Source: Pontibacter kalidii | GTDB taxonomy: Bacteria; Bacteroidota; Bacteroidia; Cytophagales; Hymenobacteraceae | Direction of reading: 5' to 3' | Length of the DNA stretch: 64,000 nt | Assembly (NCBI RefSeq): GCF_026278245.1 | Contig: NZ_CP111079.1 | Location: forward strand, 3,982,501 to 4,046,500 | Shown here: piece by piece, positions 2,944 through 53,552 of the stretch | Layout: each line of letters starts with the position of its first letter | How positions within the stretch are numbered: position 1 is the stretch's first letter | Program-made: the position numbers and the translations under genes | The notes under the pieces: model-generated | Databases searched by the model: none | The model's input: only the letters and a program-made list of their open reading frames with translations | What the model was told of the DNA's origin: nothing

Positions 2944-3360
2944 TCCTCCCAAGAGGAATTGTCACCCCACCCCAACCCTCCCCTAAGAACAGAGGAGGGA
3001 GCTCTGCTACTTCTGTTGTCCTCTCGAGCAGGGCGAGATATCTAGCCGGAATTCTAAAGAGATCTCTCCCATAGGTCGAGATGACAGCAAGGGCGGGAGC
3101 TATCGAATCTGATCCCAGTCCTTGGGTGGAGCGCCTTGTAGATTTCCGGTTTCGCTTTAGCGAAATTGCGGAGACCGCAGGTCAAGCAAAGGAAATGTAC
3201 ACCGCGCGATGCCCTTATCGAGGGCCCCTACCCCCAGGACGAGCCCTCTCGGGCTGGAGAGCAGAAAGTATAAATGGAACAAGTTGGTTGTAAAGCCGTG
3301 GATGAACGGGAGCTAGCAAGTATAGCTTGGTTCGGATTGCAGAAGGCAGCGGCTAATCGA
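2944..3360 (+). repeat. Composite dispersed repeat, copy 1
   Basis: This stretch matches, in reverse orientation, the gap at 53101-53540. The shared parts come in the same order: AAGAGG(GG)AATTGTC, a CCCTCC/GGAGGG hairpin (2976-2999), an imperfect palindrome bounded by TGTCNTCTCGAG and TCGAGATGACA (3017-3087), then a block with AGCGCCTTGT, TTCCGGT, a hairpin, AGCAAAGGAA, GCGCGATGC and GAGCCCTCTCGGGCT, and finally GCTAGCAAGTATAGCTTGG and GCAGCGGCTA. The hairpin at 3150-3165 (TTTCGC TTTA GCGAAA) differs from its partner (TGCCGC GACA GCGGCA) by two compensatory base-pair changes. Copy 1 has an extra run of about 18 bases near 3212-3235. It looks like a mobile or structured non-coding element; coding frames in it are not shared between the copies. 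Confidence 0.8.
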
Positions 3361-3404
3361 GACACAAGCGGACACTTGCGCCAGGGGTAACACTCCAGGT
3401 ATAG

Positions 3405-3462
3405 ATAAAATATAAAAACCGGCTCTTGCTAAATTTAGCAGGAGCCGGTTTTTATATTTTAT
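3405..3462. terminator. Long perfect bidirectional terminator after rlmN
   Basis: The palindrome is centred on 3433/3434 and has 29-bp arms with a single G-T wobble. The GC-rich middle (AAACCGGCTC) is flanked by A-runs on one side and T-runs on the other, so it can end transcription in both directions. It lies just beyond the 3' end of rlmN (minus strand) and closes the repeat-rich gap. Confidence 0.9.
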
Positions 3463-9634: not shown

Positions 9635-10015
9635 ATGGGATTACTGAGCGGCATGATGGGACACGCCTCCGAGGTGTCAATCGAAAAACTGGCGAAGGAA
9701 TTTCAGCCGATCCTGATCGACGACGAGCGGATCGAGCGCGCCTACAAACTGATCCGGGACATGCTGGTGTTTACCAACAAGCGGCTGATACTTGTGAACA
9801 AGCAGGGCCTTACGGGCTCTAAAACCGACTACCAAAGTATACCCTACGGTAGCATCAAGATGTTCTCCAAAGAAAGCGCCGGCATCGGCGACCTGGACGC
9901 GGAACTGAAGATCTGGCTTACGGGGGAGGTGGAACCGACTATTAAGCAGGATTTCAGGAAAGGCGACAATATTAACGAGGCCTACCGGGTGCTGAGCAGG
10001 TATGTGCTGAAGTAG
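9635..10015 (+). CDS. Bacterial PH-domain protein (PF08000 type)
   Basis: The 126-residue product consists of one bacterial pleckstrin-homology-like domain (LVFTNKRLILVNKQG, QSIPYGSIKMFSKESAG, then a C-terminal helix ending YRVLSRYVLK). The binding partner of these small domains is unknown. The start is the ATG at 9635. Its stop codon TAG (10013-10015) is also the first three bases of the left inverted repeat of the DUF559 cassette. The 260-base upstream gap holds several TATACTT motifs between 9550 and 9630 and no other gene. Confidence 0.88.
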   Translation: MGLLSGMMGHASEVSIEKLAKEFQPILIDDERIERAYKLIRDMLVFTNKRLILVNKQGLTGSKTDYQSIPYGSIKMFSKESAGIGDLDAELKIWLTGEVEPTIKQDFRKGDNINEAYRVLSRYVLK

Positions 10016-10055
10016 GACCTCCCCCTGCCCCCTCCTAAAAACAGGAGGGGGTGTT

Positions 10056-10424
10056 TTAGCCATTTTTAAATAATGCAGTTATCTTTTGTAGCACCTTTTC
10101 CGGCTGCTCAAAAATCTCACTGTTTCTGATGCGGATAACTTTGTAGCCCAGATGCTGTAGCTTTTCGTCGCGTACTTGGTCATTTGCGATGGCTTCGGGC
10201 GTATCATGCACAGAGCCATCTATTTCTATGATCATTTTTTCAGAGGCGCAGTAGAAATCCACGATGTAGCTCCCAATGCTGTGCTGCCTCCTGAACTTAC
10301 GACCACCTAATTTATGCTTCCGAAGCAAACGCCACAGTTCCTCTTCCGCAGGAGTTAAGCTATTTCTCAGTATGGATCGCTCCTGCCTCAGGTTAGGAAT
10401 ATTGTGTAGCTGATCTTTCCGCAT
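10056..10424 (-). CDS. DUF559 endonuclease-like protein
   Basis: The 122-residue protein belongs to DUF559, a PD-(D/E)xK nuclease-like family related to very-short-patch repair (Vsr) endonucleases. The putative catalytic residues are present: Asp56 (YIVDFYC) and Glu67-Ile-Asp69 (IIEIDG), followed by GYKVIRIRNSEI. The N-terminus has the usual LRNSLTPAEEELWRLLRK helix. It is a full-length, apparently intact gene. It is more AT-rich than its neighbours by eye and lies inside a 42-bp inverted repeat, suggesting acquisition. No adjacent cytosine methyltransferase is present, so a Vsr repair role is unlikely. Confidence 0.9.
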   Translation of the reverse strand: MRKDQLHNIPNLRQERSILRNSLTPAEEELWRLLRKHKLGGRKFRRQHSIGSYIVDFYCASEKMIIEIDGSVHDTPEAIANDQVRDEKLQHLGYKVIRIRNSEIFEQPEKVLQKITALFKNG

Positions 10425-10477
10425 TTTTTATACTTTGTCGGCTAACATTTACTCCTATTATTAATGTTCCAAAAAGC

Positions 10478-10512
10478 AAAGGCCTTTCTCTAATAGACAG
10501 AGAAAGGTCTTT
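10478..10512 (-). terminator. Probable rimO terminator
   Basis: AAAGGCCTTTCTCT (10478-10491) pairs with AGAGAAAGGTCTTT (10499-10512) with one mismatch. On the minus strand it is followed by GCTTTTTGG, the T-run of an intrinsic terminator. It now lies inside the DUF559 cassette, upstream of the nuclease gene, separated from the rimO stop by the right inverted repeat. Confidence 0.7.
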
Positions 10513-10567
10513 GTCGAAAAATATCTTTACACCCCCTCCTGTTTTTAGGAGGGGGCAGGGGGAGGTC

Positions 10568-11881
10568 CTAACTCACCACTTCCCCATACAAGTCAAAATC
10601 CGAGGCATCCGTGATCTTCACGTTCGCAAAGTCACCTAAACGTACATAGGTGCTGTCGGCTGGTACGAGTACCTCGTTGTCTACCTCCGGAGAGTCGTAT
10701 TGGGTGCGGCCCACAAAATAACCGCTCTCCTTGCGGTCGAAGAGCACTTTGTAGGTCTTGCCGATCTTTTCCTCGTTCAGTTCGACTGAAATGCCCTGCT
10801 GCAGCTCCATAATCGCATCGGCGCGCTCCTGCTTTACTTCCTCCGGCACGCTGTCCTCCAGCGTATAAGAGTGAGTGTTGTCTTCATGCGAGTAGGTAAA
10901 GATGCCCAGCCTATCGAACCTGGTCTCCTCTACCCAGTCATACAGCTCCTGAAAGTCCTGATCGGTCTCGCCCGGGTGGCCGGCTATAAGGGTCGTTCTT
11001 AAAGCGATGTCCGGCACGCGCTGACGGATCTGGTCTACCAGCTCAATAGTGCGGCGCTTGCTTATACCACGGCGCATCGACTTCAGCATGTTATCGGAAA
11101 TATGCTGCAGCGGCATGTCGAGGTACTTGCAGATGTTCTCGCGCTCGTTCATCACGTCGAACACGTCCATCGGAAACTGCGACGGGTAAGCATACTGCAT
11201 CCTGATCCACTCAATGCCGTCTACATCCGACAGGTTACGCAGCAGGTCGGCCAGTTTACGCTCACCATAGTGCTGCAGGCCGTAATAGGTCAGGTCCTGG
11301 GCAATCAGCACCAGTTCCTTCGTGCCCATACTTGCCAGGCGCTTTGCCTCGCGCACCAGATCCTCAATCGGACGGTCCACGTGCTTGCCGCGCATGAGTG
11401 GGATGGCGCAAAACGAGCAAGGCCGGTTACAACCCTCGGCAATTTTAAAGTAAGCAAAGTGCGAAGGAGTCGTCAACAGGCGCTCTCCAATGAGTTCGTG
11501 CTTGTAGTCGGCCTCCAGTGTTTTAAGCAGGCGCGGCAATTCCAGCGTACCGAAGTAGGCATCCACCTGTGGGATCTCCTGCTCCAGCGAGTCCTTGTAG
11601 CGCTGCGACAAGCAGCCTGTCACGTACAGCTTGTCGATCTGCCCTGCCTCCTTGGCCTCGGCGTAACGCAGAATGGTATCGATAGACTCCTGCTTGGCGT
11701 TGTCGATAAAGCCACAGGTGTTCACGATGATGATGTTGGAATCATCCTTATCAGACTCGTGCGCCACCTCAAACTCGTTGGCGCGCAGCTGCCCCATCAA
11801 CACTTCCGAGTCCACCAGGTTTTTAGAGCAACCCAAGGTAACTACGTTTACTTTATCTTTCTTAAGTGATCTTACTTTCAC
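10568..11881 (-). CDS. rimO: Ribosomal protein S12 methylthiotransferase RimO
   Basis: RimO is a radical-SAM enzyme that adds a methylthio group to a conserved Asp of ribosomal protein S12. The 437-residue protein has the N-terminal MTTase domain with its three cluster cysteines C18, C56 and C90, the radical-SAM motif C151-x3-C155-x2-C158 (CNRPCSFC), and a C-terminal TRAM domain (about 370-437). Length is typical. The stop codon TAG lies in the outer end of the right arm of the DUF559 cassette. The gene appears monocistronic. Confidence 0.96.
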   Translation of the reverse strand: MKVRSLKKDKVNVVTLGCSKNLVDSEVLMGQLRANEFEVAHESDKDDSNIIIVNTCGFIDNAKQESIDTILRYAEAKEAGQIDKLYVTGCLSQRYKDSLEQEIPQVDAYFGTLELPRLLKTLEADYKHELIGERLLTTPSHFAYFKIAEGCNRPCSFCAIPLMRGKHVDRPIEDLVREAKRLASMGTKELVLIAQDLTYYGLQHYGERKLADLLRNLSDVDGIEWIRMQYAYPSQFPMDVFDVMNERENICKYLDMPLQHISDNMLKSMRRGISKRRTIELVDQIRQRVPDIALRTTLIAGHPGETDQDFQELYDWVEETRFDRLGIFTYSHEDNTHSYTLEDSVPEEVKQERADAIMELQQGISVELNEEKIGKTYKVLFDRKESGYFVGRTQYDSPEVDNEVLVPADSTYVRLGDFANVKITDASDFDLYGEVVS

Positions 11882-17056: not shown

Positions 17057-17088
17057 AATTCCCCTCCTTGGAGGGGTAGGGGTGGGTT
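17057..17088. repeat. Solitary CCCCTCC/GGAGGGG hairpin with G-rich flank
   Basis: CCCCTCC (17061-17067), TT, GGAGGGG (17070-17076) is followed by TAGGGGTGGG. Read on the minus strand it is CCCACCCCTA-CCCCTCC-loop-GGAGGGG-AATT, the same layout as the arms around the DUF559 gene and the copies at 2830 and 53444. The 465-base gap 16937-17401 also holds two terminators and the repeated string TTCATTTAAGCA at 17020 and 17374. Confidence 0.7.
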
Positions 17089-53049: not shown

Positions 53050-53100
53050 GGTTATACTTGTACTTGCCCTAGCCATACTTTTATACTTGCTGATTTATAC

Positions 53101-53540
53101 TTCACTAGCCGCTGCTTCCTTCTATTTGAACCAAGCTATACTTGCTAGCAACCGCTGATCCTCTAGTTCCCACAAACCTACTGTTGCATCTCATGCCTTG
53201 GTGCTCTCAAGCCCGAGAGGGCTCGTCTTCCCGCATCGCGCTGTGTTCCCTTCCTTTGCTACCCTTCGGTCGCAATGCCGCTGTCGCGGCACCGGAATCT
53301 CACAAGGCGCTCAACCCAAAGACTGGGTATCATTTCGATAGCCACAGCTATTTGTCATCTCGAACGTAGTGAGAGATCTATTTAGAACTCTGCATAGATC
53401 TCTCGCCCTGCTCGAGATGACACGGAGAGGAGTAAGTATAATTCCCCTCCTCGGAGGAGTTAGGGGTGGGTTTACGCTTTGTAAGGGGACTGGGGAATGA
53501 TAATCACATGCCGGACAATTCCCCTCTTGGGAAGGCCAGG
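53101..53540 (-). repeat. Composite dispersed repeat, copy 2
   Basis: Read on the minus strand, this is the partner of 2944-3360. It contains AAGAGGGGAATTGTCC (53514-53529), the ACTCCTCC/GGAGGGG hairpin (about 53444-53472), the palindrome TGTCATCTCGAG...TCGAGATGACA (53352-53422), then TTTGGGTTGAGCGCCTTGT, the hairpin TGCCGC GACA GCGGCA (53276-53291), GCGCGATGC, GAGCCCTCTCGGGCT (about 53210-53224) and GCTAGCAAGTATAGCTTGG (about 53135-53155). The gap 53050-53586 also contains four TATACTT motifs between 53050 and 53150 and no gene I can support. Confidence 0.8.
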
Positions 53541-53552
53541 GGGTGAGTTTAT
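53517..53552. repeat. Solitary C-rich/G-rich hairpin
   Basis: AATTCCCCTCTTGGGAAGGCC is followed by AGGGGGTGAG. It has the CCCCTC-GGGAAGG then G-rich tail layout of the hairpin family at 17061 and 53444, in the same orientation, with a few mismatches in the stem. Confidence 0.5.

What the first reader, a model, noticed from the sequence alone, without database searches (positions are those of the whole stretch)
10013..10570. DUF559 nuclease gene bracketed by perfect 42-bp inverted repeats, with solitary relatives elsewhere: a REP/RAYT-like system with a different enzyme
Seen: 10013-10054 is the exact reverse complement of 10529-10570; each arm has its own CCCCTCC/GGAGGGG hairpin; the only gene inside is an intact DUF559 nuclease. 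Related hairpins with the same C-rich flank occur without any gene at 2830, 2976, 17061, 53444 and 53521, all between genes. Known: REP palindromes are paired around RAYT transposase genes and also occur alone. Inference: here a Vsr/DUF559-type nuclease may spread or maintain its palindromes.
Basis: partly seen in the sequence, partly recalled or inferred. Interest (0 to 1): 0.85.

Follow-up and report, generated by a model that had tools for sequence, protein, structure and literature searches.

The report
Nuclease gene bracketed by triplex repeats
A small bacterial nuclease gene of unknown role (DUF559) sits between two mirrored copies of a short DNA repeat that could fold into a triple helix; the same pairing recurs in distant bacteria and suggests which enzyme may belong to a widespread repeat family that had none.

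Summary
The 42-bp arms are perfect and bracket a DUF559 (Vsr-fold) gene. In the genus (50 species searched), 112 of 138 DUF559 loci have an inverted-repeat bracket, against 1 of 101 ORFs sampled from the own genome, that one being this gene. 99 of 128 genes carry same-class arms in opposite orientation; there are six classes. On the protein tree their seven states need 6 changes, the minimum.

The arms are not RAYT-type REPs. Each is a hairpin plus a G-rich tail mirroring the purine stem: the 'intrastrand triplex motif' (BoxC/PIT/TM) of Holder et al. 2015. By a triplex scanner, 123 of 127 genus genes have a motif within 300 bp and 95 on both sides; control windows give 3/151 and 0/151. The link recurs, less completely, across phyla; E. 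coli ycjD lies about 168 bp from TMECO no. 9.

Best reading: DUF559 nucleases are the cognate, co-evolving enzymes of triplex repeats, a REPtron-like system with unrelated chemistry. Cleavage and spreading are inferred. Against a strict version, solo repeats persist in genomes lacking the matching gene class.

The parts
10013..10054 (-). left arm, class A: hairpin CCCCCTCCT..AGGAGGGGG plus tail GGGGGAGG, tail pointing away from the gene; triplex core 10016-10051
   Evidence: exact inverted repeat; triplex scanner score 18 of 20, n=10
10056..10424 (-). DUF559 gene, 122 aa, Vsr/EDxHD-type nuclease fold
10477..10513 (-). terminator-like hairpin followed by a T run in rimO sense, lying inside the cassette between the right arm and the DUF559 start
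   Evidence: sequence; by eye, a hairpin with a T run follows rimO in many of the 29 readable junctions
10529..10570 (+). right arm, class A, mirror copy of the left arm; triplex core 10532-10567; its outer end overlaps the rimO stop codon
2818..2851 (-). solitary class B triplex repeat
   Evidence: score 18, n=10; intergenic
2964..2999 (-). solitary triplex repeat, CCCTCC variant
   Evidence: score 17, n=9; intergenic
17061..17085 (+). solitary class C triplex repeat
   Evidence: score 14, n=7; intergenic
53431..53465 (+). solitary, imperfect class C-like hairpin plus tail (below the scanner threshold)
   Evidence: family D4; intergenic
53508..53542 (+). solitary, imperfect hairpin plus tail (below the scanner threshold)
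   Evidence: family D4; intergenic

Best explanation
The cassette is a REPtron-like unit: one DUF559 (Vsr/EDxHD-fold) nuclease gene flanked by two inverted copies of its own cognate repeat, an intrastrand-triplex (BoxC/PIT/TM) element; solitary and doublet repeats elsewhere are its gene-less derivatives. Shown by computation: the association, its class specificity, the class-wise orientation, the triplex-type architecture of the arms, the nuclease fold, and presence/absence of cassettes at orthologous intergenic sites. Inferred: when a repeat becomes single-stranded (replication, repair) it folds into a hairpin/triplex; the DUF559 protein recognises that fold and cuts beside it; repair of the break, using another repeat or the cassette as template, copies arms (homogenising the two arms of a cassette) and occasionally spreads repeats or the whole cassette to new intergenic sites. 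Recognition and cleavage are the more likely steps (about 0.75), active dissemination less so (about 0.5).
For: Inverted-repeat bracket (score 20 or more): 112 of 138 genus DUF559 loci against 1 of 101 own-genome ORFs (this gene) and 0 of 26 neighbour genes; mismatched up/down pairs 297 of 1950. Of 128 genes, 99 carry same-class arms in opposite orientation: A 15 and B 29 tail-out, C 11, D 18, F 6 tail-in, E 19 in and 1 out. Seven arm states need 6 changes on the tree, the minimum; with unassigned rows included 27 against a shuffled mean of 81.4, 0 of 200 as low. Triplex motif within 300 bp: genus 123/127 either side, 95/127 both (93 in opposite orientation), controls 3/151 and 0/151; phylum sample 58/76 and 38/76 (controls 2/32, 0/32); all-phyla short frames 39/53 and 18/53, long frames 16/22 and 13/22 (controls 7/99, 0/99). 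Stem-tail match exceeds all 1000 permutations in each of three samples. Arms of one cassette resemble each other more than arms between cassettes in classes A, B, E (0/500) and D (3/500); in L051, L139 and L149 the flanking repeats on both sides hold the same inserted loop block. Orthologous empty sites. Genomes without DUF559 hold 0, 0, 1 and 15 repeats of the four classes counted; total genes against total solos rho 0.55. E. coli TMECO no. 9 lies about 168 bp from ycjD. A DUF559 protein, VsrA, is required for an SOS response in Caulobacter lacking a methyltransferase (PMC12907096, passages).
Against: Class-by-class co-occurrence of gene and solos is weak: p = 0.043 (B), 0.26 (C), 0.09 (D), 0.009 (E), without phylogenetic correction; solos of one class are also associated with genes of other classes, at times more strongly (for example B solos with C genes, p = 0.005). 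The own genome has 71 class B, 20 class D and 6 class E repeats but no gene of those classes. 29 of 128 genus genes got no class by the rule. Arm homogenisation is absent in classes C (378/500) and F (77/500). Outside the genus many DUF559 genes show no bracket: both-side motifs in 38/76 and 18/53, and in 3 of 12 plasmid-record loci, either side 7 of 12. The E. coli gene has a motif on one side only, and so has the Neisseria gene by the scanner. The stem-tail covariation margin is modest (own 0.661, 0.610, 0.682 against permuted maxima 0.643, 0.588, 0.676). The fold offers no strand-transfer chemistry. I saw no cleavage assay on these repeats. Holder et al. could not show stable triplexes in vivo.
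Confidence: 0.62

Rival explanations
1. Homing-type selfish gene: the nuclease cuts unoccupied repeats or compact repeat doublets, and recombination through the flanking arms copies the DUF559 gene into them; the repeats are the targets and the homology, not its offspring.
Against: Arms of occupied cassettes are intact repeats, so insertion does not destroy the supposed target; the class C doublets read have the opposite layout to class C cassettes; repeats outnumber genes by ten or more in many genomes, which homing alone does not explain.
Confidence: 0.2
2. Passenger model: triplex repeats spread by another route and accumulate at DUF559 genes because these are dispensable intergenic genes; the nuclease plays no part in repeat biology, or serves other repair such as very-short-patch repair.
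For: Solos without a matching gene class; Caulobacter VsrA is proposed to act in mismatch repair (PMC12907096, passages).
Against: Class-specific orientation and one arm class per protein clade; near-absence of brackets on other genes; stop codons of several class C and F genes lie inside the arm.
Confidence: 0.1
3. Transcription insulators: the arms act as bidirectional terminators or as mRNA-stabilising hairpins around a small gene wedged between convergent neighbours.
For: Class A arms abut the stop codons of rimO and bPH; in bPH sense the left hairpin is followed by TGTTTT.
Against: In rimO sense no T run follows the arm directly and a separate terminator-like hairpin lies beyond it; according to Holder et al., PIT elements showed no promoter or terminator activity; this does not explain the third strand or the match of arm class to protein clade.
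Confidence: 0.05

Closest known systems
Intrastrand triplex motif / BoxC / PIT element / TM(ECO) (Holder et al. 2015, PMC4666352; abstract, sections 15 and 18, Table 1 and passages seen)
   Same: Same architecture: pyrimidine stem, short loop, purine stem, short second loop, antiparallel purine-rich third strand; intergenic, multicopy, at times in inverted pairs. The E. coli TMECO no. 9 sequence lies about 168 bp 3' of the DUF559 gene ycjD.
   Different: Known there as repeats without an enzyme: the authors report no associated mobility functions and no consensus function of flanking genes; the main text has no word beginning with 'DUF' or 'nuclease' and no 'ycjD'. I did not see the classes and their pairing with DUF559 clades in what I read of it.
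REP / RAYT (TnpAREP) REPtrons
   Same: One gene associated with cognate palindromes, many gene-less copies genome-wide, co-evolution of enzyme groups with repeat groups (PMC8266576, abstract and introduction).
   Different: TnpAREP is a HuH enzyme with a catalytic tyrosine and a GTAG motif beside the repeat; here the enzyme has a Vsr/PD-(D/E)XK fold, and GTAG occurs in or near only 36 of 198 arms.
EDxHD homing endonucleases (I-Bth0305I)
   Different: No intron, intein or interrupted conserved gene was seen at the window locus; the flanks are triplex repeats.
Vsr very-short-patch repair endonuclease
   Different: No Pfam Vsr match at E 0.001, DUF559 and MTES_1575 only; no methyltransferase between the arms.

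Membership tests
RAYT/TnpAREP REPtron | HuH (Y1) transposase encoded between the repeats | tested here: not met
   the gene between the arms matches DUF559 and MTES_1575 and has a Vsr-type fold
RAYT/TnpAREP REPtron | conserved GTAG tetranucleotide beside the palindrome | tested here: not met
   GTAG in or within 8 bp of 36 of 198 arms
RAYT/TnpAREP REPtron | cognate repeats flank the gene in inverted orientation and also occur alone | tested here: met
RAYT/TnpAREP REPtron | enzyme groups co-evolve with repeat groups | tested here: met
   7 arm states, 6 changes on the protein tree
Intrastrand triplex motif (BoxC/PIT/TM) | Y stem, loop, R stem, loop, antiparallel third strand with G.G-C and A/T.A-T triads | tested here: met
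   own scanner, not the authors' ITxF: window arms 18 of 20; 123/127 genus genes
Intrastrand triplex motif (BoxC/PIT/TM) | formation of a triplex in solution | not testable with these tools
   needs CD, NMR or probing of the arm oligonucleotides
EDxHD / DUF559 nuclease | Vsr-like PD-(D/E)XK core with conserved acidic and His residues | tested here: met
   invariant E27, D56, E67, H73, D82 in 36 sequences; fold
Homing endonuclease | cuts the empty allele and converts it | not tested
   empty sites exist, but cleavage and conversion were not examined
Insertion sequence / MITE | transposase and target-site duplication | tested here: inconclusive
   no transposase between the arms; junctions could not be resolved to the base because the intergenic flanks are diverged

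The most novel reading that the evidence does not exclude
Triplex repeats (BoxC/PIT/TM), dispersed widely in bacteria and found in archaea, are the substrates and products of one ancient mobile system: a family of Vsr-fold DUF559 nucleases that read a folded single strand (hairpin plus third strand), cut it, and spread it through repair. This would be a dissemination route without transposase, recombinase or reverse transcriptase, built on an enzyme devoted to a DNA triplex-forming element.
Probability: 0.4. Interest if true: 0.95.

Novelty: new variant of a known kind. Interest (0 to 1): 0.85.

Why it matters
[quoted passage not shown] DUF559 is a nuclease family listed by Pfam as of unknown function. 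Linking them turns two open questions into one testable hypothesis with a ready laboratory model (E. coli K-12 ycjD with its 23 TMECO repeats). If the enzyme acts on its repeat, repeat systems of the REPtron kind can be built on a repair-type nuclease instead of a transposase, and a natural enzyme for a DNA triplex-forming element would be at hand.

Tried and rejected
Rfam: no family reached its gathering score at the cassette; the two weak matches listed are far below theirs. PADLOC: only weak partial matches to other nuclease domains (best E 4.8e-5; one is named homing endonuclease, 1.3e-4), so a defence-system reading was dropped. Simple co-occurrence of gene class and solo class was tested and is weak. 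The idea that class C doublets are cassette deletions was dropped because the five read have the reverse layout. Inversion between the arms as the cause of the opposite gene orientation in G001 and G024 against G000 was considered and left open: in G001 a terminator-like hairpin lies outside the arm. A covariation test with permuted tails gave a significant but small margin; in that script 10 of the 53 all-phyla loci had been cut at wrong coordinates, so it was repeated with the right ones and 1000 permutations, with the same outcome. Base-level insertion junctions could not be fixed.

Literature: searches timed out. Those answered: (14 papers with 'DUF559'; listing, and passages of two). In these I saw no paper linking DUF559 with palindromes or triplex repeats; most subscription journals are not held. 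Papers: PMC4666352 (outline, abstract, sections 15 and 18, passages including Table 1); PMC8266576 (abstract, introduction); PMC12306157, PMC8044849, PMC1189080, PMC12907096, PMC9403480 (passages). The others are listings only.

Rows dropped before counts: of 145 DUF559 rows, 138 loci were used (five weak or fragment rows left out, the second pieces of two split copies merged). Matches under 282 nt were left out of the class count (128 genes), the tree (127; L099, a weak match without arms, also left out) and the triplex count (127; L085 left out for a short flank, L099 kept). 29 of 128 genes stayed without a class by rule; for the genome-wise test they took the class of the nearest classed protein and four fragments were left out; classes A and F were not counted as solos. 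The phylum sample is 78 loci: 60 short-frame hits that I picked going down the listing, not every one, 16 short-frame loci given by the search (two more at contig ends left out) and two; 76 had long enough flanks; its control windows come only from loci over 3 kb. The listing itself is cut at the best matches. The all-phyla sample is the best 80 of 570 confirmed relatives, 57 with an open frame of 260 codons or less, 53 of these and 22 long-frame ones with long enough flanks. Plasmid sample: 12 of the 30 rows listed, one per genus, besides the E. coli and Neisseria rows fetched earlier.
Full report
WHAT IS THERE. The 42-bp arms at 10013-10054 and 10529-10570 are exact reverse complements and enclose one gene, a 122-aa DUF559 protein at 10056-10424 on the minus strand. 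The cassette lies between the convergent genes rimO (10568-11881, minus) and a bacterial PH-domain gene ending at 10015, with the outer ends of the arms overlapping both stop codons. The own genome (5.05 Mb) has three short DUF559 genes and one weak longer match. The other two short ones, L002 and L003, are also bracketed, by a different arm sequence in the opposite orientation. The general hairpin pattern occurs 205 times in the genome against 3 for the reversed control.

THE GENUS. A Pfam search over 50 species of the genus found DUF559 in 46. I used the flanks of 138 loci. An unguided inverted-repeat score of 20 or more was found in 112 of 138 DUF559 loci, 1 of 101 ORFs sampled from 144 kb of the own genome (the window gene itself), 0 of 26 neighbouring genes, and 297 of 1950 mismatched up/downstream pairs, the last, I take it, because unrelated loci share arm classes. 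The arms fall into six classes; 99 of 128 genes with a near-complete match carry the same class on both sides in opposite orientation: A 15 (the window among them) and B 29 tail-out, C 11, D 18 and F 6 tail-in, E 19 tail-in and 1 tail-out; 29 had no class by the rule. On a FastTree tree of 127 proteins the seven arm states need six changes, the minimum possible; with unassigned rows included, 27 changes against a shuffled mean of 81.4 (0 of 200 as low). The alignment has 107 columns and many open forks, so the deeper order is uncertain.

WHAT THE ARMS ARE. In each class the tail after the hairpin is the mirror image of the purine stem strand, with G opposite G and T or A opposite A (for example class B stem AAGGAGGGG, tail GGGGTGGTT; class D AAGGGGG, GGGGGAT; class F GAGAGGGG, GGGGTGTG). 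This is the rule of an antiparallel purine-motif triplex, the 'intrastrand triplex motif' that Holder et al. describe as the former BoxC or PIT element (PMC4666352). A scanner for that rule finds a motif within 300 bp of 123 of 127 genus genes on at least one side, and on both sides of 95, 93 of them in opposite orientation. Own-genome control ORFs had both sides in 2 of 101, one of them the window gene, and shuffled flanks 0 of 60. Window pairs placed at least 400 bp away in the same loci had 3 of 151 either and 0 of 151 both. Without requiring a tail match, hairpins found near DUF559 genes match their own tails better than all 1000 permutations in the three samples, though by a small margin (which mends).

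BEYOND THE GENUS. In 76 short DUF559 genes from outside the genus (74 from the phylum search, two), 58 have a motif on one side at least and 38 on both (controls 2/32 and 0/32). In 53 short-frame genes from a similarity-ranked sample across bacteria and archaea, 39 and 18; in 22 long-frame ones, 16 and 13 (controls 7/99 and 0/99). By inverted-repeat score alone, 16 or more was reached in 35 of 78 phylum loci against 36 of 2967 mismatched pairs and in 25 of 57 short-frame all-phyla loci against 171 of 4000. Brackets of that score were seen in loci titled Anaerolineae, Candidatus Viridilinea, Planktothrix, Chamaesiphon, Nostoc, Pirellula, Peribacteraceae, Gracilibacteria, Thermomonas and Caulobacter, and a weaker one (15) in a Methanophagales archaeon; that of Caulobacter does not follow the triplex rule by eye. 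A further check on 12 plasmid-record loci, one per genus, gave 7 with a motif and 3 with both sides; two more (Sphingobium, Shinella) show by eye a form with a hairpin in the second loop, which the scanner does not allow. In E. coli MG1655 the annotated DUF559 gene ycjD is at 1351407-1351760 and the exact sequence of TMECO no. 9 starts at 1351204, the coordinate printed in the paper's table, about 168 bp from the gene end. With 18 TMECO regions the chance of such nearness to a given gene is about 0.16%, worked out after the fact. The E. coli gene has no motif on its other side; the Neisseria gene has motifs on one side by the scanner and an imperfect one by eye on the other.

GAIN, LOSS AND EXCHANGE. 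The rimO/bPH junction carries the class A cassette in 7 of 29 readable junctions (30 of 50 genomes fetched, one truncated) and in others is empty or holds a class B or C solo repeat. At the L003 locus the class C cassette is present in G000 and G013; a remnant of its 3' end lies in G052 and, by eye, a shorter one without arms in G014; G012, G020, G006 and G057 show neither; four of the twelve genomes searched were not resolved. The insertion follows a terminator-like hairpin, but the junction cannot be fixed to the base. The two arms of one cassette are more alike than arms between cassettes in classes A, B, E (0 of 500 permutations) and D (3 of 500), not in C or F. In L051, L139 and L149 the repeats on both sides hold the same inserted loop block, which points to copying between the sides. 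Gene-less doublets occur; three copies of one class E doublet family lie at separate places in G044 (by eye).

RESULTS AGAINST A SIMPLE STORY. Solo repeats do not depend strictly on a resident gene of the same class: the own genome has 71 class B, 20 class D and 6 class E repeats and none of these gene classes. Class-wise tests give p = 0.043 (B), 0.26 (C), 0.09 (D) and 0.009 (E), without phylogenetic correction, and some solos go better with genes of another class (B solos with C genes, p = 0.005; C solos with B genes, p = 0.002). Total gene number and total solos correlate (rho 0.55), and the four genomes without DUF559 hold 0, 0, 1 and 15 repeats of the four classes counted. Gene loss with persistence of repeats, or action across classes, would fit but is not shown.

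MECHANISM. I favour a REPtron-like system in which the nuclease reads its folded repeat and cuts beside it, and repair copies repeats or cassettes. Association and co-evolution are shown; recognition, cutting and spreading are inferred. The main rival is a homing-type selfish gene that uses repeats as targets and homology; a passenger model and an insulator model are less likely. It works like a REPtron but is not a member of that family: the HuH enzyme and the conserved GTAG were tested and not met. The arms meet the sequence rule of the triplex-motif family.

NOVELTY. The repeat family and the nuclease fold are both known; the link between them was not seen in the papers searched. Holder et al. 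write that they never found mobility functions around TMECO sites; their main text has no word beginning with 'DUF' or 'nuclease' and no 'ycjD'. I rate it a new variant of a known kind, with a real chance that it is categorically new if the enzyme proves to act on the triplex.

Noticed in passing
window 3017-3433 and 53106-53422: Inverted copies (82-90% alike) of a dispersed repeat about 250-400 bp long; many further copies in G013, G044, G014 and G012 appeared as side matches, one of them in the own genome at window 53080-53327.
   Followed up: no
L013, L100, L103 (own genome): Class C repeats occur as tail-out doublets inside a larger unit of about 130 bp with outer inverted ends near GTTGCGAT / ATCGCAAC, a MITE-like composite.
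   Followed up: partly
L051, L090, L132, L139, L149 (loops of flanking repeats): Repeat loops hold inserted blocks (for example with GAGCTACGCTCGC), sometimes the same block on both sides of one gene and sometimes on one side only.
   Followed up: partly
L465 (Sphingomonas parapaucimobilis plasmid record): A DUF559 gene sits between sufB and sufC of an Fe-S assembly operon, directly after a triplex motif.
   Followed up: no
L466 (Pseudanabaena galeata plasmid record): Triplex motifs lie on both sides of a DUF559 domain inside one annotated long open frame.
   Followed up: no
L318 (Gracilibacteria): The DUF559 match contains one in-frame stop under the standard code, perhaps because this lineage reads TGA as an amino acid (recalled); inverted-repeat arms are present.
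   Followed up: no
G046:C1:752187-768965: Four DUF559 genes, of the B and E clades, within 17 kb of one contig.
   Followed up: no
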